In this document: one piece after another, positions 25,448-33,564 of the stretch
Layout of the letters: every line of letters begins with the position of its first letter
How positions within the stretch are numbered: position 1 is the first letter of the stretch
Assembly (NCBI RefSeq): GCF_900108055.1
Contig: NZ_FNWJ01000002.1
Span: 258,382-322,381 of the forward strand
Reading direction: 5' to 3'
From: Thermoleophilum album
GTDB taxonomy: Bacteria > Actinomycetota > Thermoleophilia > Solirubrobacterales > Thermoleophilaceae
DNA: 64,000 nucleotides
The notes under the pieces: generated by a model
What the model was told of the DNA's origin: nothing
Databases searched by the model: none
The model's input: the letters and a program-made list of their open reading frames with translations, nothing else
Made by a program: the position numbers and the translations under genes

Positions 25448-25740
25448 CCTCGGCCGCGCCCGAGCCTGTACGCCAGCCGGTTTTCGTTAGCGCGGTTGAG
25501 CCAACACCACGGGTCGTCAGGGAGTCGGCTCGCCGACGCCAGGCTCAGTGAGCCCAGCAGCCGAGGCGGCGACTCCCGATCGTGTCGATCAAGGCCCAAC
25601 ACCCGCACCGGCAGCGGCAGGCTGGGGCGTTTTGTGCAGTGGGCTGACGCTGATCTGTGCCGGGACGGGACCGTGACTTGTGCGGAAGCGATCGCAATGG
25701 GGCGCAAATCCGGGGGTTTCGCCGACTCTTCGGCGCGGCC
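25448..25740. other. Gene-poor gap before mnmA
   Basis: Short frames exist on both strands, but none has a convincing start, domain or coding character. The only structure I can support is the hairpin at 25520-25577. Confidence 0.5.
25520..25577. ncRNA. Possible structured RNA element (multi-helix hairpin)
   Basis: GGGAGTCG (25520-25527) pairs perfectly with CGACTCCC (25570-25577). Inside, CGCC (25531-25534) pairs with GGCG (25565-25568), and GGCTC/GAGCC (25542-25554) closes an AGT loop. Three stacked helices in a non-coding gap suggest a structured RNA or leader; no known family is recognised and there is no T run. Confidence 0.35.
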
Positions 25741-25754: not shown

Positions 25755-27239
25755 GTGTCCGCCGATCGAGCCGCTCCCGCGCGCGCCTCTAGCCCGCAGG
25801 CGCGCGAACAGTTCGAGCAACTCCTGACTGCGTGCAGGGGCGATGGCGCGCTGGTCGAGTGGCCGCACGCGGGCATCGCGGGCGGAGCGCCGTGCGGGGA
25901 TCTCGTGCGAATCGCGGTTCGCTGCGCCGGCGAGACGGTCGAGGAGGTCGGGTTCACGGCCAGCGGTTGCGGGGCCGCTCGAGCGTGCGCTGCCGCCACC
26001 GTCGAACTCGCCGAGGGGCGTCCGTTGCTCGAGGTCGCGAAGCTCGGGGCTAGTGACATCGCGGCGTACGTCGGGGGTCTCAGCCCCGGCAAGTGGCACG
26101 GTGCTGCGCTTGCCGCCGATGCCTTGCACCGGGCGCTCGGCATGGCGTTGGCGGCCGGCGCGGTCGCGCACCCGCAGCGCAGCGGGCGGGTGGTGGTCGC
26201 CTTCTCCGGCGGTGTCGACAGCACCGTCGCCGCCTACTTGGCAGCGCAGAGCGGAAAAGAGGTGGTGGCGGTGACGCTCGAATTGTGGGCCGACCCGGCC
26301 ACCGACCCGGAGCGCAGCTGCTGCTCGCCCCGCGCCGTGCTGCGCGCACGAGGCCTTGCGCACACGCTCGGGCTACCACACTTCACGCTCGACCTGCGGC
26401 AGCGCTTCAGCGCGCAAGTGGTGTCCCCGTTCTTGCGTCTCCACGACGCCGGTCGCACGCCCAACCCGTGCGTCGTCTGCAACGGGCAGGTGCGTTTCGA
26501 TGCCCTGATCGCGGCGACTCACGCGCTCGGCGCGGAGCGACTGCTGACCGGTCACTACGCGCGCCTCGCCGACGATGGCGAAGGGCTCTTGTTGCGTCGC
26601 GCCAGCGATCCCTGCAAGGACCAGTCGTACATGCTGGCGCGGCTCGAGCCCGCGCTTCTCGAGCGGCTCGAGTTCCCGCTCGGGAGTCTCGAGAAAACGC
26701 AGGTGCGGGAGATCGCGCGCGCCGCTGCGCTACCGGTGGCAGAGCGACCGGAGAGCCAGGACCTCTGCTTCGTAGCCGGGCTCGGCACGCGCTCCTTTCT
26801 GCGTCGCCACGCCGCCAGCAGCTTGCGTCGCGGAAAGTTCGTTACGCGCGACGGGCGTGAGGTTGGCGAACACGACGGTCACCAGCTTTACACCGTGGGG
26901 CAGCGGCGAGGGCTCGGCGTGGCGATGGGGTACCCCGCCTACGTCGTAGCCAAGGACCCACAGCGCAACCGCGTGGTTCTCGGCACCCGCGATGAGCTTT
27001 GGGCGCGCCGCGTCTATCTCGACCGTGATCTGATCCTCCACCGCGCCCCCCAGCGGGTGCGGGCAGTGCAGTTGCGCTACCGGCAGCGCCCCCTGCCCTG
27101 TGTGCTCGTCGAAGACGAGGATCGGGCTTGGCTGGAGCTCGCCCAGCCAGCGCTCGCCCCCGCCCCCGGTCAGACGGCGTGCTTGCTTGACGGTGAGCTG
27201 GTCGTCGGCGCCGCGACGATTGCCGGCTGGGAGAAGTGA
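25755..27239 (+). CDS. mnmA: IscU/NifU-like scaffold domain fused to tRNA 2-thiouridylase MnmA
   Basis: A 494-residue fusion. Residues about 15-135 form an IscU/NifU-N domain: APCGD with Cys47, SGCGAARAC with Cys72, and the end motif LSPGKWHGAALA, where the third cluster Cys of IscU (HC) is replaced by Gly116. From about 145 follows MnmA, which thiolates U34 of tRNA-Lys/Glu/Gln: PP-loop SGGVDS (151-156), NPCVVCN near 238 (CxxC) and ESQDLCF near 338. The CxxC+C set matches the MnmA group proposed to use a 4Fe-4S cluster. The fusion suggests direct supply of cluster or sulfur. Start GTG 25755 by the TAACCT box. It ends in a GTGA overlap with 27236. Confidence 0.88.
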   Translation: MSADRAAPARASSPQAREQFEQLLTACRGDGALVEWPHAGIAGGAPCGDLVRIAVRCAGETVEEVGFTASGCGAARACAAATVELAEGRPLLEVAKLGASDIAAYVGGLSPGKWHGAALAADALHRALGMALAAGAVAHPQRSGRVVVAFSGGVDSTVAAYLAAQSGKEVVAVTLELWADPATDPERSCCSPRAVLRARGLAHTLGLPHFTLDLRQRFSAQVVSPFLRLHDAGRTPNPCVVCNGQVRFDALIAATHALGAERLLTGHYARLADDGEGLLLRRASDPCKDQSYMLARLEPALLERLEFPLGSLEKTQVREIARAAALPVAERPESQDLCFVAGLGTRSFLRRHAASSLRRGKFVTRDGREVGEHDGHQLYTVGQRRGLGVAMGYPAYVVAKDPQRNRVVLGTRDELWARRVYLDRDLILHRAPQRVRAVQLRYRQRPLPCVLVEDEDRAWLELAQPALAPAPGQTACLLDGELVVGAATIAGWEK

Positions 27240-27709
27240 TCTTGGTCGGGGCAGCTTCCGTGCGTACCGGCAGTGCTGGTGGTCGCGAGCGCGTGCAGCT
27301 GGTTGCCGCTTTTGCCCGCCAAGACGACCCGATGCTGCGGATGCTCGTCGGCGCGATAGCCGCTCGAGCGGACCTCACACTGGCCGCTATCGACGACCTT
27401 CAGCTTGCGCTGGAGACGGTGCTGGCGACGGTCGACGACAGCGCACAGCTGGAGCTCGACTTCGTGCTCGACGGCGAACGGCTGAGCGTACGCGTCGCGC
27501 CCTTGCCAGCCCGTATCGAACCGCTTTTGGCTGGTGACGCCGCAACAACGCCGGGTCTCGGCGAGGACCGTGCGCCGGGCGCCGAGGATCGTCCCTACGT
27601 GCCCTCGCTCGCCGAGGTGCTCACGACGCTCGCCGACGGCTGTCGTGTGGAGCGCGCACGTGAGGGTCTCGCAGTTACGCTGGAGAAGCGGCGGCTGAGG
27701 GGCGGCTAG
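27236..27709 (+). CDS. RsbW-like ATPase-fold protein with degenerate motifs (putative anti-sigma)
   Basis: A 157-residue protein. Residues about 14-85 follow the start of the RsbW/SpoIIAB fold (VQLVAAFARQDDPMLRMLVGA, then DDLQLALETVLATV, the position of the N-box helix). The metal-binding Asn of the N-box and the glycine-rich ATP lids are not visible, so kinase activity is doubtful. It lies two bases before a SigB/SigF-type sigma factor, the usual place for its anti-sigma factor, which is the main reason for the call. It starts with GTG overlapping the mnmA stop. The C-terminal part has no recognised motif. Confidence 0.55.
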   Translation: MILVGAASVRTGSAGGRERVQLVAAFARQDDPMLRMLVGAIAARADLTLAAIDDLQLALETVLATVDDSAQLELDFVLDGERLSVRVAPLPARIEPLLAGDAATTPGLGEDRAPGAEDRPYVPSLAEVLTTLADGCRVERAREGLAVTLEKRRLRGG

Positions 27710-27711
27710 GG

Positions 27712-28440
27712 ATGGCAGCGGGGGCTCCAGACCTCGAGCTCCTGCGGCGTTACCACGAGCGCGGCGATCGCCGAGCGCGCGAGGAGTTGATCCGCCGGCA
27801 CCTGCCGCTGGTACGGGCCCTCGCACGACGCTACGCAGGGCGCGGGGAGCCGGTCGAAGACATCGAGCAGGTCGGCGCGATTGGGCTTATCAAGGCGATT
27901 GACCGCTTCGAGTTGTCGCGCGGCGTCTCGCTCGCGACGTTCGCGACCCCGACTGTCCTGGGCGAGATCCGGCGCCACTTCCGCGATCGCGGCTGGGCGG
28001 TGCGGGTACCGCGCGCTCTCCAGGAGCTGCATGCCGCAGTGACTGCCGCGGTTGATCGGCTTGGTGCTCGCTTAGGTCGCTCGCCGAGCGTGCTTGAGCT
28101 CGCTCGCGAGGTCGGCGCGACCGTCGAGGAGGTGATCGAGGCGCTGGAGCTCGGCTCCGCCTACGCACCGGCGTCGCTCGACCAAGGAAGCGAAGAACAG
28201 GAGACCGACGCGCTGGAGATGCTCGGTCACGACGAGCCTGGCTACGCGCGTTCGGAGATGCGGGCGACGATCGAGCCGGCACTGCGCCGCCTGCCGCGTC
28301 GCGAGCGTGACATCCTGCGGATGCGCTTCGGCCTCGGCCTCTCGCAGGCCGAGATCGCGCGTCATGTAGGACTTTCCCAGATGCACGTCTCGCGGTTGAT
28401 AAGGCGCGCCCTGGCGGCGATGCGCGAGGAGATCGGCTGA
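27712..28440 (+). CDS. RNA polymerase sigma factor, SigB/SigF/SigG type
   Basis: Group 3 sigma factor, 242 residues, usually directing general stress or developmental genes. Region 2 reads HLPLVRALARRYAGRGEPVEDIEQVGAIGLIKAIDRFE split across regions 2.1-2.2, with LATFATPTVLGEIRRHFRD for promoter melting and -10 binding. Region 3 follows near 100-160, and region 4 has the helix-turn-helix LSQAEIARHVGLSQMHVS near residue 212. It starts at ATG two bases after the RsbW-like gene, so the pair is probably one regulatory unit. Confidence 0.93.
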   Translation: MAAGAPDLELLRRYHERGDRRAREELIRRHLPLVRALARRYAGRGEPVEDIEQVGAIGLIKAIDRFELSRGVSLATFATPTVLGEIRRHFRDRGWAVRVPRALQELHAAVTAAVDRLGARLGRSPSVLELAREVGATVEEVIEALELGSAYAPASLDQGSEEQETDALEMLGHDEPGYARSEMRATIEPALRRLPRRERDILRMRFGLGLSQAEIARHVGLSQMHVSRLIRRALAAMREEIG

Positions 28441-28441
28441 G

Positions 28442-30013
28442 GTGGAGCCGGCACGCCGCCGCGCTGGTTGCGCGGCGCTGCTCATCGCCACGCTGCTCGT
28501 CGGCGGTTGCGGCGACGGCGAGCGCCGGGTCGGCTCCGCCCTCAGTGGCGGTTCGGCGGAGGTTGCGCTGTCGGCCCCGGTGCGCGAGTTCGACCCCGCG
28601 CGTCTGCGCTCGAGAACTCTCCTAGAGCTGGCCGCCGCCGCTTACGCGCCGCTCTATCGACGCGTCGACGGGGACGGCGGGGTGCAGCTCGAGCCCGTGC
28701 TGGCGCGCTCGCTGCCAAAGACCAGCGACGATCGACGCACGCTGGTGATCGAGCTGAGGCCCGGCCTGCGCTTTGCCGACGGTCGACCGCTACGGGCGCG
28801 CGACGCGGCCGCAACGATCGAGCGGTTGGTGCGCTTCGGCGGCGAACGTGCGCGGGCATTCTCGGCGATCGACGGCTGGGGCGCCTTCGCGCGCGGTAAA
28901 GTCCGTCGCCTGCGCGGCGTAAGTGCCCGCGGGCTGCGTCTGCAATTGAGGCTGCGTCACCCCGACGTGACGCTGCCTTGGGTACTAGCTGAGCCGTGGT
29001 CCGGGATCGTCCCGGCCGCTACCGACGCCCGCGGCTCGCGCACGCAGCCGCCGTCGGCGAGTGGCCTCTACGCCGCGTTCCTGCGCCGGCAGCGTGGTGG
29101 ATCGCTGGTTTTGGTGCGGCGGCGCCGGCTTCAGCTCAAGCCGCTAGGACCGGGATACCTCGACCGTATCGAGGCGTCGGCGGTATCCGGCGACGCCCTG
29201 AACTTGGCGTTGCGGGATCGCGTCGACGTGGTCGAGCGGCGAGCGGACCGCGAGCGCATACCGATCCTCAGGTCCACCTACGCGGACCGCTATCGGGACG
29301 TGCCGACGCGGGCCGTCGCTTACCTGTTCCTGAACCCGCGGTTGTGGCCGTTCGGCGACCGCCGGGTGCGGCGAGCTGTAGCGCTCGCTCTCGATTACGC
29401 CAAGATCCGGCGGCTCGCGCTCGGTTTCCTGGACGGCTCTTGCGATCCGCTGCCAGAGGGAGTGCTGGGGCATCGCGGCGATGGCTTCTGCGCCCGGGGT
29501 GCCCGGGGCGGCGCGCCGCGCCCCGACGACGCTCAGCGGATACTGGCCGATGCCGGCGTGCTCGGTGCGCCGGTGACGGTCTGGGCGGAGCGCTCCGCGG
29601 TCACTTTCGCCGTCGCCCGTGAATATGCGCGCACGCTCAACGAGCTCGGTTTCCGCGTGCGGCTGCGGTTGCTCGGGGCGGCCTCCTTCCGGCGCGCACT
29701 GCCGCGGCTTTGGACGCGCGCGCAGACCGGGCTAGCGGTGGTCGATCCGCAGCTTGTGCACCCGTACGCGTACCTCGCGCAATTACGCCTGCTCGATCCG
29801 GTGGCGCGTCGTGAGCTCGCTGTGCTGAGGCGCCAAGCCGACGATGCCGAGCCCTGGCAGGGGCTGTTCGACCGCGTGCTCGGTGAGGGATGGGTGGTGC
29901 CGCTGGGGACGCTCCGCTCACCGCTCCTTCTTTCGCGCCGCATCGACGTCGACGCTTGCCTTCGCGTCGACCCGCTCGACGGGCTCGACTATGCCCGTCT
30001 CTGTTTGCGCTAG
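28442..30013 (+). CDS. Peptide/solute-binding lipoprotein (SBP family 5)
   Basis: Extracellular solute-binding protein of an ABC importer, 523 residues. The N-terminus is a lipoprotein signal: basic MEPARRRAG, hydrophobic stretch, lipobox LVGGC with Cys23. The family-5 pattern is seen in LELAAAAYAPLYR, LVIELRPGLRFADGRPL, a mid-region AYLFLNPRLWPFGDRRVRRA and LAQLRLLD near the end. It differs from most relatives in having no permease or ATPase genes beside it, so the substrate (oligopeptide, nickel or other) is unknown. GTG 28442 follows the sigma gene by one base. It overlaps the convergent HD-GYP gene by 4 bases. Confidence 0.82.
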   Translation: MEPARRRAGCAALLIATLLVGGCGDGERRVGSALSGGSAEVALSAPVREFDPARLRSRTLLELAAAAYAPLYRRVDGDGGVQLEPVLARSLPKTSDDRRTLVIELRPGLRFADGRPLRARDAAATIERLVRFGGERARAFSAIDGWGAFARGKVRRLRGVSARGLRLQLRLRHPDVTLPWVLAEPWSGIVPAATDARGSRTQPPSASGLYAAFLRRQRGGSLVLVRRRRLQLKPLGPGYLDRIEASAVSGDALNLALRDRVDVVERRADRERIPILRSTYADRYRDVPTRAVAYLFLNPRLWPFGDRRVRRAVALALDYAKIRRLALGFLDGSCDPLPEGVLGHRGDGFCARGARGGAPRPDDAQRILADAGVLGAPVTVWAERSAVTFAVAREYARTLNELGFRVRLRLLGAASFRRALPRLWTRAQTGLAVVDPQLVHPYAYLAQLRLLDPVARRELAVLRRQADDAEPWQGLFDRVLGEGWVVPLGTLRSPLLLSRRIDVDACLRVDPLDGLDYARLCLR

Positions 30014-30819
30014 TGCGGCTCAGCGAGATCGCTTCGACGCCTTCGCTGGCGCCGCACGATGGCGGTCAGTGCGTCGACGACCTGCGGATCGAACTGCGTG
30101 CCGGCGCTGCGGTGCAGCTCGGCGAGCGCCAGCGCCTCCGGCCAGGGGCGACGGTAGGCGCGCCGACTGGTCATCGCGTCGTAGGCGTCGCAGACGAAGA
30201 CGATGCGCGCCTCGATCGGGATCTCCTCGCCAGCGAGGCCGAGCGGGTAGCCGCGACCGTCGAAACGCTCGTGGCTGGCGCGCACGATCGCCGCGATCTC
30301 GGCGAGCTCGGGGTCGGTGCCGACGATGATCGCCGCGCCGCTCAGGGTGTGGCGCTTGACGAGCTCGAACTCGCGAGGGGTCAACGGTCCTGGTTTGTCG
30401 AGGATCTCCGTCGGCACGACGATCTTGCCGACGTCGTGGAGCAGCGCCGCCAACGCGACCCGTTCGCGCACCGCCTCCGGGAGTCCGCACTCCTCGGCCA
30501 CCGCACAGGCAATTTCCACGACCGACGTCGAGTGCTCGGCGGTGTAGGCGTGTTCGTCCTCGAGCAGCGCCGCAAGCATGCGGGCGTTCCGCCAGGCTCG
30601 CTCGTCAAGCCTGTGGCCGGGTGAGCTGGTAACGCGCCGCGGCGGCGGCGCGTCCTTATCGGCGAGGGACCGCGTGTTCGCAGAGGGGCGCGAGTGCCTC
30701 GCGTTTCTACTACCGGCGGCGATCTCTCGCAGCCGGGCCAGCAGGCGGTGGTAGCTGCCGCGTCTCGCCTGCGCGGCGCAGATCACTTCGGTTGCGGCGA
30801 CGCCTTGCGCAGAGGTCAT
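30010..30819 (-). CDS. HD-GYP domain protein, putative c-di-GMP phosphodiesterase
   Basis: A 269-residue protein. A poorly conserved N-terminus (1-85) leads into an HD-GYP domain: HSTSVVEIACAVA, the HD pair in ALLHDVGKIVVP, the later metal His in VKRHTLSGA, HERFDGRGYPLGL (the GYP motif) and VCDAYDAMTSRRAYR. All core metal ligands seem present, so c-di-GMP hydrolysis is likely. There is no sensor domain or membrane segment. ATG 30819 is chosen because the long frame upstream runs antisense through alaS. It is divergent from alaS and convergent with the lipoprotein gene. Confidence 0.82.
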   Translation of the reverse strand: MTSAQGVAATEVICAAQARRGSYHRLLARLREIAAGSRNARHSRPSANTRSLADKDAPPPRRVTSSPGHRLDERAWRNARMLAALLEDEHAYTAEHSTSVVEIACAVAEECGLPEAVRERVALAALLHDVGKIVVPTEILDKPGPLTPREFELVKRHTLSGAAIIVGTDPELAEIAAIVRASHERFDGRGYPLGLAGEEIPIEARIVFVCDAYDAMTSRRAYRRPWPEALALAELHRSAGTQFDPQVVDALTAIVRRQRRRRSDLAEPH

Positions 30820-30929
30820 GTCGGCAATCGTCCGCGGCCGCGCCGCCGGCGACCAAGGTTGCGCAAAAAGGCTGCAGTTTCGAGCCGAAAAATGGGCGCC
30901 TGCGCGGCAGTTTTCGTTGCGACCACGCT

Positions 30930-30935
30930 TAGACT
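30930..30935 (+). promoter_or_regulatory. Probable -10 box of alaS
   Basis: TAGACT ends 7 bases before the alaS ATG at 30943, implying a leaderless alaS message. Confidence 0.55.
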
Positions 30936-30942
30936 GCGGGCG

Positions 30943-33564
30943 ATGCGCGCCGAGCAGATCCGCGAGACCTTCCTCGAGTTCTTCGAGCGGCGCGGGCATC
31001 GGCGACTCGAGTCCGCCTCGCTGGTGCCCTCCGTTTACGACCCCTCGGTCCTTCTGACGACCGCCGGTATGCAGCCGCTGAAGCCGTACTTCCGGGGCGA
31101 GGAGGAGCCCCCGGCGCGCCGTCTCACCTCGTGTCAGCGCTGCTTCCGCACGACCGACATCGACAACGTTGGGCGCACCGCGCGCCACCTGACGTTCTTC
31201 GAGATGCTCGGCAACTTCTCGATCGGCGACTACTTCAAGCGCGAGGCGATCGAGTACGCGTACGAGCTTTCGACCGAGGGTTTCGGATTCGATCCGGAGC
31301 GCATCTGGATCACCGTCTTCGGGGGCGATCCCGCCCTTGGGTTGGGTCCCGACGAGGAGGCGATCGAGTACTGGCGGGGGGTTGGGATTCCCGAGGACCG
31401 GATCGTTCGCCTCGGCCGTGACGACAACTTCTGGCAGGCGGGACCGACCGGACCCTGCGGACCCTGCTCCGAGCTCTACTACGACCGCGGGCCGCAGTAC
31501 GGCGCCGACTCCGAGCGGCCGGGCGACGACACCGACCGCTTTTTGGAGTTCTGGAACCTCGTCTTCATGCAGTACGAGCTGCATCCCGGCGATCGGCTGA
31601 GCGAGCTACCGCAGCGCAACATCGACACCGGTGCCGGTCTCGAGCGGCTGGCGGCGCTGTTGCAAGGGGTTCCGTCGGTCTTCGAAAGCGACCTCTTCCG
31701 GCCACTTGTCGAGCTCGGCGAGGAGCTATCCGGGCGTCGGTACGGGGAGGATTTCAGGGTTACGCGGGCCCTGCGCATAATCGCCGACCATGGCCGCGGC
31801 GCCACCTTCCTGCTCGCCGACGGCGTCGTGCCGTCGAACGAGGAGCGCGGCTATGTGCTGCGCCGGATCATGCGCCGGACGGTGCTGCAGGGGCGCGTGC
31901 TGGGGATCGATCGGCCACTGCTCGAGCCGCTCTACGAGCGCGTGATCGAGACGATGAGTGGCGCCTGGCCCTACCTGCGCGACGAGCGTTCGACGATTCT
32001 GCGCTGGGCGCGCACCGAAGAGCAGAACTTCGCCCGCACGATCGAGCAGGGCCGCGACCTGCTCGAGGAGCTGATCGCGCGCGCGAAGCGCGAGGGTGCG
32101 AGCGAGATCGACCCCGAAGACGCTTTTCGCTTGCACGACACCTTCGGCTTTCCGTTTGAGCTGACGCGCGAGCTGTTGGCCGAGGAGGGGTTGAGCGTCG
32201 ACGAGCAAGCCGTCAAACGCCTAATGGAGCGTGCCCGCGAAGTCGCGCGGCGCGGCGCGAGCAAGGCCGGTACGGCGGCGGAGCGTCGGGAGCGGGCCGC
32301 CGAGTTGGCGCGTGCCAGCGGCGCGGCGAGCCGCTTCGTCGGTTACGAGCGTCTGGCGACCGACACCAAGGTCTTGGGGAGCGCCGACCACGACGGCCAG
32401 CTGCTGGTCAAACTCGCCGAAAGCCCCTTTTACCCCGAGGGTGGCGGCCAGGTTTCGGACACCGGGCTGCTGGAGGGTGAATGGGGGAGAGCGCGCGTGC
32501 TCGACGCGATCCGCCTGCCCGACGATCAGGTGCTGGTCTGCGAACTGCTCGAGGGGAAGCCACCGAGCGTCGGGGCGGAGGTGCACGCGCAAGTCGACGA
32601 GGAGCGCCGGCGGCGCACGATGCGTAACCACACGGCGACCCACCTGCTGCACGCCGCCCTCCGCCGGCAGCTCGGAAGCCACGTTCGTCAGGCTGGCTCG
32701 TACGTCGGTCCCGACAAGCTGCGCTTCGACTTCACCCACGGCAAGCGTCTGGGGCGGGACGAGGCGGAGGAGATCCAGGGACTCGTGAACGCCTGGGTCG
32801 AGCAGCGCCTGCCCGTTCGCGCCTTCGAGACGACGCGTGAGGAGGCGAACCGGCTCGGCGCGATCGCGCTGTTCGGCGAGAAGTACGGCGATTGGGTGCG
32901 CGTCGTCGAGATCGACGACGTCTCGCGCGAACTGTGCGGGGGTACGCACGTCGCGTCGAGTGCCGAGATCGGTCTTTTCGAGATCGAGGCTGAGACCTCG
33001 AGTGCCAGCAACGTACGACGGATCGAGGCGGTCACGGGTCCCGCGGCGGCCGCCCTGTTCGCGCGACGGAGCGCGACGCTGGCGCGACTTAGCGAGCTGT
33101 TGCGGGTGCCCGAGCAGGAGCTTGTCTCGGCAGTCGAACGGCTGCAACGAGAGCTCAAGGAAGCCCGCAAGCGTGCGCAGTCGGGCGACGGAAGGGCCCA
33201 AGCCGAACGCATCGTGGCGTCGGCCCAACGGCGCGACGGCACCGCTGTCGTCGTCGAGGCGGTAGAGGGCCTAGAGCCACGTGCACTCGTCGACCTCGCC
33301 GACGCCGTGCGTCAAAAGCTGGGGAGGGCGGTGGTGCTACTCGCGACCACGGTCGAGGGGCGGGCCCATCTGGTCGCGAGCGTCGCTCCGGAGCTGGTCG
33401 ACGTAGGCCTGCGTGCCGATCAGCTGGTGCGCGAGGCAGCCGCGGCGATCGGCGGCGGCGGTGGCGGTCGACCGACAATGGCACAAGCTGGTGCCAGAGA
33501 CGCGGCCCGTCTTGCCGAGGCGCTCGAACAAGGACGTGCCGTGATCGAGCGCGCGCTGAGCTGA
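30943..33564 (+). CDS. alaS: Alanyl-tRNA synthetase
   Basis: Class II synthetase with editing domain, 873 residues, the normal length. The catalytic core begins MRAEQIRETFLEFF; LTSCQRCFRTTDIDNVG and FFEMLGNFSIGDYF are the adenylation motifs. The editing site is NHTATHLLHAALR near 564, and its last metal ligands are in CGGTHVASSAEIG near 666. The C-Ala domain ends the protein with a Gly-rich turn (IGGGGGGRPTMAQAG). ATG 30943 is chosen over upstream in-frame starts because the fold begins there. ruvX starts immediately after the stop. Confidence 0.97.
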   Translation: MRAEQIRETFLEFFERRGHRRLESASLVPSVYDPSVLLTTAGMQPLKPYFRGEEEPPARRLTSCQRCFRTTDIDNVGRTARHLTFFEMLGNFSIGDYFKREAIEYAYELSTEGFGFDPERIWITVFGGDPALGLGPDEEAIEYWRGVGIPEDRIVRLGRDDNFWQAGPTGPCGPCSELYYDRGPQYGADSERPGDDTDRFLEFWNLVFMQYELHPGDRLSELPQRNIDTGAGLERLAALLQGVPSVFESDLFRPLVELGEELSGRRYGEDFRVTRALRIIADHGRGATFLLADGVVPSNEERGYVLRRIMRRTVLQGRVLGIDRPLLEPLYERVIETMSGAWPYLRDERSTILRWARTEEQNFARTIEQGRDLLEELIARAKREGASEIDPEDAFRLHDTFGFPFELTRELLAEEGLSVDEQAVKRLMERAREVARRGASKAGTAAERRERAAELARASGAASRFVGYERLATDTKVLGSADHDGQLLVKLAESPFYPEGGGQVSDTGLLEGEWGRARVLDAIRLPDDQVLVCELLEGKPPSVGAEVHAQVDEERRRRTMRNHTATHLLHAALRRQLGSHVRQAGSYVGPDKLRFDFTHGKRLGRDEAEEIQGLVNAWVEQRLPVRAFETTREEANRLGAIALFGEKYGDWVRVVEIDDVSRELCGGTHVASSAEIGLFEIEAETSSASNVRRIEAVTGPAAAALFARRSATLARLSELLRVPEQELVSAVERLQRELKEARKRAQSGDGRAQAERIVASAQRRDGTAVVVEAVEGLEPRALVDLADAVRQKLGRAVVLLATTVEGRAHLVASVAPELVDVGLRADQLVREAAAAIGGGGGGRPTMAQAGARDAARLAEALEQGRAVIERALS

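What the first reader, a model, noticed from the sequence alone, without database searches (positions are those of the whole stretch)
25755..27239. IscU/NifU-like scaffold fused to a CxxC+C-type tRNA thiolase MnmA, with one cluster Cys lost
One frame carries an IscU-N domain (Cys47, Cys72) and a full MnmA (SGGVDS, NPCVVCN, ESQDLCF). The third IscU Cys is Gly116 (KWHG), so the scaffold cannot hold a cluster by the normal three-Cys set. MnmA proteins with a CxxC plus a distant Cys have been proposed to use a 4Fe-4S cluster. The fusion suggests a self-contained route bringing a cluster or sulfur to the thiolase, perhaps with a ligand borrowed from MnmA.
Basis: partly seen in the sequence, partly recalled or inferred. 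Interest (0 to 1): 0.75.

Follow-up and report, generated by a model that had tools for sequence, protein, structure and literature searches.

The report
tRNA thiolase with remodelled IscU domain
A tRNA-modifying enzyme in this bacterial lineage carries, fused to its front end, a former iron-sulfur assembly protein that has lost its sulfur-accepting cysteine but has kept, without exception in 126 genomes, a complete four-residue metal site, so it looks repurposed as a metal-gated sulfur-delivery or docking module rather than broken.

Summary
Confirmed: window 25755-27239 is one intact gene for an IscU/NifU-like domain fused to a full C-type MnmA (CC-CxxC-C), and the third cluster Cys is Gly116. 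It is not an artefact. The fusion recurs across Thermoleophilia, in Rubrobacter and in four further Actinomycetota families; Clostridia and two other Actinomycetota families keep the apparent ancestral operon nifS-nifU-mnmA as separate genes. The Cys loss is not decay. In five families of the class (101 genomes) only 5 of 112 domain columns are invariant, and four are Cys37, Asp39, Cys63 and His105 (E. coli numbering; window C47, D49, C72, H115). That is the tetrahedral Fe/Zn site published for free ISCU; the missing residue is ISCU's persulfide acceptor. Among 145 fused domains with the Cys-Asp-Cys core, every one keeps exactly one of His105 (126) or Cys106 (19). Elsewhere the site decays, Cys1 often going last. 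Best reading: a former scaffold turned into a mononuclear-metal (Zn or Fe) module that docks a cysteine desulfurase and passes persulfide, probably via Cys47, to MnmA. No ligand need be borrowed from MnmA. Function is inferred. New variant of a known kind; interest 0.55.

The parts
25755..27239 (+). fused iscU~mnmA gene (a start at GTG 25680 is possible)
   Evidence: homologues begin at the equivalent of 'REQFEQLL'
25800..26165 (+). IscU/NifU_N-like domain (residues ~16-137), modelled with an IscU fold
   Evidence: PF01592 59.5 bits; AlphaFold2 pLDDT 80-97 by 10-residue block over residues 11-140; A. fulgidus IscU Z 20.3, 1.8 A
25893..25901 (+). Cys47-Gly48-Asp49 (IscU Cys37, Asp39): metal ligands; Cys47 is the proposed persulfide carrier
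   Evidence: Cys37 and Asp39 101/101 in f1-f5, 25/25 in f23
25968..25970 (+). Cys72 (IscU Cys63): metal ligand
   Evidence: 101/101 in f1-f5, 25/25 in f23
26097..26102 (+). His115-Gly116 (IscU His105 kept, Cys106 lost)
   Evidence: His 126/126, Cys 0/126 in the CDCH class
26178..27236 (+). MnmA (tRNA 2-thiouridine(34) synthase) domain, C-type
   Evidence: NF001138 338 bits; MnmA/TrmU 2hma Z 40.4
26319..26324 (+). CC motif Cys189-Cys190
26469..26480 (+). CxxC motif Cys239-V-V-Cys242
   Evidence: invariant in every MnmA of the set
26766..26768 (+). distal Cys338 of ESQDLCF
   Evidence: invariant in every MnmA of the set

Best explanation
The N-terminal domain is a former IscU/NifU scaffold, inherited from a nifS-nifU-mnmA operon by gene fusion (supported by synteny and sequence; whether it happened once or more often is open). 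In the window's lineage it has given up the cluster-building Cys106 and kept an intact mononuclear metal site Cys-Asp-Cys-His (shown by conservation; the metal, Zn2+ or Fe2+, is inferred from ISCU and SufU work). Inferred mechanism: the metal-loaded domain docks a cysteine desulfurase. That is NifS where it is encoded next door; here probably SufS, the only desulfurase that passes its curated cut-off in this genome. On docking, Cys47 is displaced from the metal by a desulfurase residue, as Cys40 of Zn-SufU is by SufS His354, and takes the persulfide. The tethered domain then hands sulfur to the CxxC+C centre of MnmA (or to a [4Fe-4S] cluster bound there), which thiolates U34. It would do inside one chain what the Tus relay does in E. 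coli. Steps shown: fusion, conserved site, loss of Cys106, predicted folds, presence of SufS, no TusA found. Steps inferred: metal identity, docking partner, persulfide on Cys47, transfer to MnmA.
For: Only 5 of 112 domain columns are invariant in 101 relatives and four are C37, D39, C63, H105 (mean top-residue frequency 0.60). All 145 domains with an intact C-D-C core keep exactly one of H105/C106, while 32 of 36 with a broken core keep neither (not corrected for shared ancestry). These are the ligands of free ISCU2 (Cys69, Asp71, Cys95, His137), and Cys138 (= C106) is the persulfide acceptor (PMC11021402). In Zn-SufU, Cys40 (= C37) takes persulfide after SufS His354 displaces it from Zn (PMC10216065); the window genome's SufS carries the residues listed there (His352, His354, Asp355, Arg368, Gly370, His371, by spacing from the catalytic Cys in the sequence). 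Cys1 is the last ligand left in f9 and f12 (12/12). nifS lies directly upstream of the fusion in f10, f11, f23 and of separate nifU-mnmA in Clostridia, f29, f51. SufS is the only desulfurase over its cut-off; no TusA hit. AlphaFold2 pLDDT 92, pTM 0.90.
Against: No biochemistry. In NFS1-ISCU2 the persulfide goes to the third Cys, absent here, and Cys69 was not required for it. The fold is nearer IscU (Z ~20) than SufU (Z ~14), so the SufU analogy for Cys1 is by residue and not by closest fold. Families that have lost the site altogether (f7, most of f16) live with MnmA, so sulfur can reach MnmA without it. The residue pattern rests on few independent changes on the tree. The tools gave no inter-domain geometry.
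Confidence: 0.5

Rival explanations
1. The domain still works as an iron-sulfur scaffold or chaperone: it holds a transient cluster with Cys-Asp-Cys-His and delivers it to the CxxC+C site of MnmA.
For: C-type MnmA of Thermus is reported to depend on an Fe-S cluster (Shigi 2020, cited in PMC11784392), and the five MnmA Cys are kept in nearly all members. IscU fold. A [2Fe-2S] form of M. tuberculosis SufU is in the PDB (9dcl).
Against: The Cys needed to receive persulfide for [2Fe-2S] synthesis is missing in 126 of 126 CDCH members. Nearly all fused genomes examined keep a separate scaffold or SufU gene.
Confidence: 0.17
2. The domain is a desulfurase-docking or regulatory adapter: the metal site only controls binding, and sulfur passes from desulfurase straight to MnmA, without a persulfide on Cys47.
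For: ISCU and SufU engage desulfurases through this metal site. Asp and His are as invariant as the two Cys. B. subtilis needs no intermediate persulfide carrier.
Against: In f9 and f12 Cys1 is kept while Asp, Cys2 and His are lost, which fits a thiol function better than metal docking alone.
Confidence: 0.22
3. The domain is a degenerating relic that now only stabilises MnmA.
For: Clear decay in some families: f9/f12 one ligand left, f16/f34 irregular, f7 a remnant with the metal loops excised (hhalign probability 96.7).
Against: In the window's own order and in f5 the four ligands are among only five invariant columns in 101 genomes; a decaying site would be expected to lose ligands first.
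Confidence: 0.09
4. Assembly error or frameshift joined two genes.
For: None found.
Against: The same in-frame fusion recurs in well over a hundred genome assemblies, some of them single-contig.
Confidence: 0.01

Closest known systems
MnmA / TrmU, C-type (CC-CxxC-C; Thermus type)
   Same: Full PP-loop enzyme with all five Cys; fold match to 2hma and 2deu at Z ~40
   Different: Carries a fused N-terminal IscU-like domain
IscU / NifU_N scaffold (ISCU2)
   Same: Fold and the ligands Cys37, Asp39, Cys63, His105
   Different: Lacks Cys106, the persulfide acceptor; reads LSPGK where IscU has LPPVK; fused to its presumed client
SufU, Zn-dependent sulfur transfer protein
   Same: Cys-Gly-Asp ... Cys core; a mononuclear metal and a Cys1 persulfide are the proposed mode of action
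   Different: Window protein has His where SufU has its last Cys; scores below the SufU model cut-off (26 of 92.5 bits). The other fused class (f8, f10, f11, f55, f73) has the SufU-like Cys-Asp-Cys-Cys set
nifS-nifU-mnmA operons of Clostridia
   Same: Same three functions side by side
   Different: nifU and mnmA are separate genes and NifU has both His105 and Cys106

Membership tests
MnmA (tRNA 2-thiouridine(34) synthase) | Curated model above cut-off | tested here: met
   NF001138 337.8 vs 284; TIGR00420 281.9 vs 237
MnmA (tRNA 2-thiouridine(34) synthase) | PP-loop SGGVDS and catalytic Cys | tested here: met
   S151-S156, C239/C242, C338
C-type MnmA | CC-CxxC-C cysteine set | tested here: met
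   C189, C190, C239, C242, C338, kept in all fused families but parts of f16
C-type MnmA | Binds [4Fe-4S] | not testable with these tools
   literature on Thermus only
IscU / NifU_N scaffold | PF01592 above cut-off | tested here: met
   59.5 vs 22 bits
IscU / NifU_N scaffold | IscU fold | tested here: met
   predicted model, Z 20.3 to 4eb5_C, 1.8 A over 126 residues
IscU / NifU_N scaffold | Three cluster cysteines | tested here: not met
   C47 and C72 present; third is Gly116; 0/126 in the CDCH class
IscU / NifU_N scaffold | Equivalog models (iscU, NifU_clost, NifU) above cut-off | tested here: not met
   41.7 of 192.4, 55.1 of 187.9, 46.8 of 273.3 bits for the whole protein
IscU / NifU_N scaffold | Assembles and transfers clusters | not testable with these tools
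   needs protein
SufU | TIGR01994 above cut-off | tested here: not met
   26.3 of 92.5 bits
SufU | Cys-Asp-Cys-Cys zinc set | tested here: not met
   Cys-Asp-Cys-His in the window; Cys-Asp-Cys-Cys in 19 other fused proteins
SufU | Cys1 accepts persulfide from SufS | not testable with these tools
   proposed here by analogy

The most novel reading that the evidence does not exclude
A fused thiolase family in which an iron-sulfur scaffold has been converted into a mononuclear-metal persulfide receiver: the fourth ligand settled in separate lineages on either His or Cys (never both), giving MnmA a built-in desulfurase port that replaces the Tus relay.
Probability: 0.45. Interest if true: 0.72.

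Novelty: new variant of a known kind. Interest (0 to 1): 0.55.

Why it matters
How MnmA obtains sulfur, and whether it truly needs a cluster, is disputed (PMC11784392). A natural fusion that ties an IscU-derived metal-site domain to MnmA, with matched natural variants (Cys-Asp-Cys-His, Cys-Asp-Cys-Cys, Cys1 only, site deleted), makes the question testable with single-residue changes and domain swaps in one chain. It also offers a natural separation of two jobs of the IscU site: metal binding kept, sulfur acceptance by the third Cys lost.

Tried and rejected
Displaced third Cys: rejected for f1-f5, where no other Cys column is conserved across the set. Lineage-specific Cys do occur in the following helix, however: C66 in 25/25 of f23, C74 in 29/29 of f5. 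Clostridial in-frame fusion: rejected; the long tblastn matches run across a stop, and nifU and mnmA are separate genes there. Link between the His class and absence of nifS: rejected, because f23 has His and an adjacent nifS. Single-sequence AlphaFold model: useless, pLDDT 36 (one job spent by mistake). Papers describing the fusion: none found with MnmA+NifU or TrmU+NifU; the library lacks most subscription papers, and I have an unverified recollection that a curated Rubrobacter entry is named a bifunctional NifU/MnmA, so the architecture itself may be on record. Shigi 2020 and Zhou 2021 not held.

Full report
OBSERVATION. The frame at 25680/25755-27239 (+) is open throughout and carries a NifU_N domain and a complete MnmA. 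Counting from GTG 25755 (the start that best matches relatives), the IscU positions are Cys47, Asp49, Cys72, His115 and Gly116. Gly116 falls exactly on the third Cys of IscU. MnmA has SGGVDS, the CC pair C189/C190, NPCVVCN (C239/C242) and C338, i.e. the C-type CC-CxxC-C set (class definition in PMC11784392). The window genome has one full MnmA. It also has a separate SufU in a cluster with sufC, a Rieske-like ferredoxin, sufB and sufD. SufS is the only desulfurase above its curated cut-off. A TusA search found nothing, although the same search rings in 11 of 14 control genomes.

DISTRIBUTION. The query matches 242 of 249 genomes of its class. A family search in 54 representatives shows NifU_N in the same long frame as MnmA in families coded f1-f5 and f8-f12, and only separate NifU_N genes in f6 and f7 (f12 below the Pfam cut-off). 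Contig lengths tie f3 to Patulibacter medicamentivorans and one f5 genome to a Miltoncostaeaceae record, so the window belongs to Thermoleophilia, in the order of Patulibacter. Outside the class, in-frame fusions occur in a family that includes Rubrobacter (f23) and in f16, f34, f55 and f73 of the same phylum. Clostridia and families f29 and f51 have nifU and mnmA as separate neighbours. A nifS gene lies directly upstream in f10, f11, f23, f29, f51 and those Clostridia; none was found in the available upstream sequence in f1-f5, f7-f9, f12, f16, f55 or f73. The simplest reading is an ancestral nifS-nifU-mnmA operon, fusion of nifU to mnmA, then loss of the neighbouring nifS in some lines. On the MnmA tree the fused proteins form two clusters, with one unfused, long-branched row (f51) beside the larger one, so one fusion with a fission, or two fusions, both remain possible.

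THE SITE IS REMODELLED, NOT BROKEN. In E. coli IscU numbering, the 101 proteins of f1-f5 all have C37, D39, C63 and H105, and none has C106 (68 Ala, 31 Gly, 2 Val). The rest of the domain is variable: over 112 columns the mean top-residue frequency is 0.60 and only five columns are invariant, four of them those ligands. f23 shows the same set in 25 of 25 analysable proteins. f10, f11, four of seven f8, all five f55 and one f73 protein have the alternative: C37, D39, C63, C106 and no His at 105. Over all 145 domains with an intact Cys-Asp-Cys core, 126 have only H105, 19 only C106, none both, none neither; of 36 with a broken core 32 have neither. These are not 145 independent events: the tree needs four changes for each class, so the Fisher value is descriptive only. 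By contrast the unfused NifU of the Clostridial operons has both residues. Decay does occur elsewhere: f9 and f12 keep only Cys1, f16 and f34 are irregular, and f7 proteins keep a remnant without the metal-binding segments; Gaiella records L105 and L148 likewise match only from the end of the domain.

STRUCTURE. With 18 sequences (the window and loci) AlphaFold2 gives pLDDT 92 and pTM 0.90 for the whole chain. VIA-align matches residues 142-494 to TrmU/MnmA at Z ~40 and residues ~16-136 to IscU at Z ~17-20, SufU at Z ~14. Coordinates and inter-domain error were not available, so I make no claim about geometry.

MECHANISM. Published work on ISCU2 shows that the free protein binds Fe2+/Zn2+ tetrahedrally through Cys69, Asp71, Cys95 and His137, and that Cys138 is the persulfide acceptor for [2Fe-2S] synthesis (PMC11021402). 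These correspond to C37, D39, C63, H105 and C106. The window clade has therefore kept precisely the mononuclear site and dropped precisely the acceptor. The alternative fused class has the set of SufU, where Cys40 (= C37) leaves Zn when SufS His354 takes its place and then receives persulfide (PMC10216065). Counting from the catalytic Cys, the window genome's SufS has the corresponding His352, His354, Asp355, Arg368, Gly370 and His371 (sequence). I infer that the fused domain is a metal-gated port for a desulfurase and that Cys47 carries the sulfur. Cys1 being the residue that survives longest in f9/f12 favours this. The main objections are that ISCU2 uses its third Cys and not its first, and that some lineages do without the site.

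VERDICT. The architecture is widespread in part of Actinomycetota; I found no paper that describes it, within the limits of the library. I file it as a new variant of a known kind (C-type MnmA with an IscU-derived domain), not as a member of the IscU scaffold family, because the three-Cys criterion was tested and not met.

Noticed in passing
window 27236-28440: The stop codon of the fused gene overlaps the GTG start of a 157-aa ORF without Pfam match, followed at once by a sigma factor with regions 2, 3 and 4; it looks like a coupled mnmA / possible anti-sigma / sigma unit.
   Followed up: partly
L062-L069, L240, L241 (family f7); L105, L148 (Gaiella-type records): MnmA with a short N-terminal remnant of the IscU domain from which the Cys2 and Cys3/His segments are deleted (hhalign 96.7%): a natural deletion series of the scaffold.
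   Followed up: partly
L242-L266 (f23); f5 loci such as L042-L048: Lineage-specific invariant extra Cys in the helix after Cys2: position 66 in 25/25 of f23, position 74 in 29/29 of f5; possible extra thiol near the site.
   Followed up: no
L272-L280 (f16): About half of these MnmA proteins have lost the CC motif while keeping CxxC and the distal Cys.
   Followed up: no
G267 (f29; L288), G418 (f51; L290): In the operon-type genomes the nifU next to mnmA is the only NifU_N gene, so it presumably also serves general cluster assembly; most fused genomes examined have a second scaffold gene.
   Followed up: partly
window 30010-31584 (-), 28442-30013 (+): HD-domain (HD_5) protein and a family 5 solute-binding protein flank the region before alaS; ordinary.
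   Followed up: no
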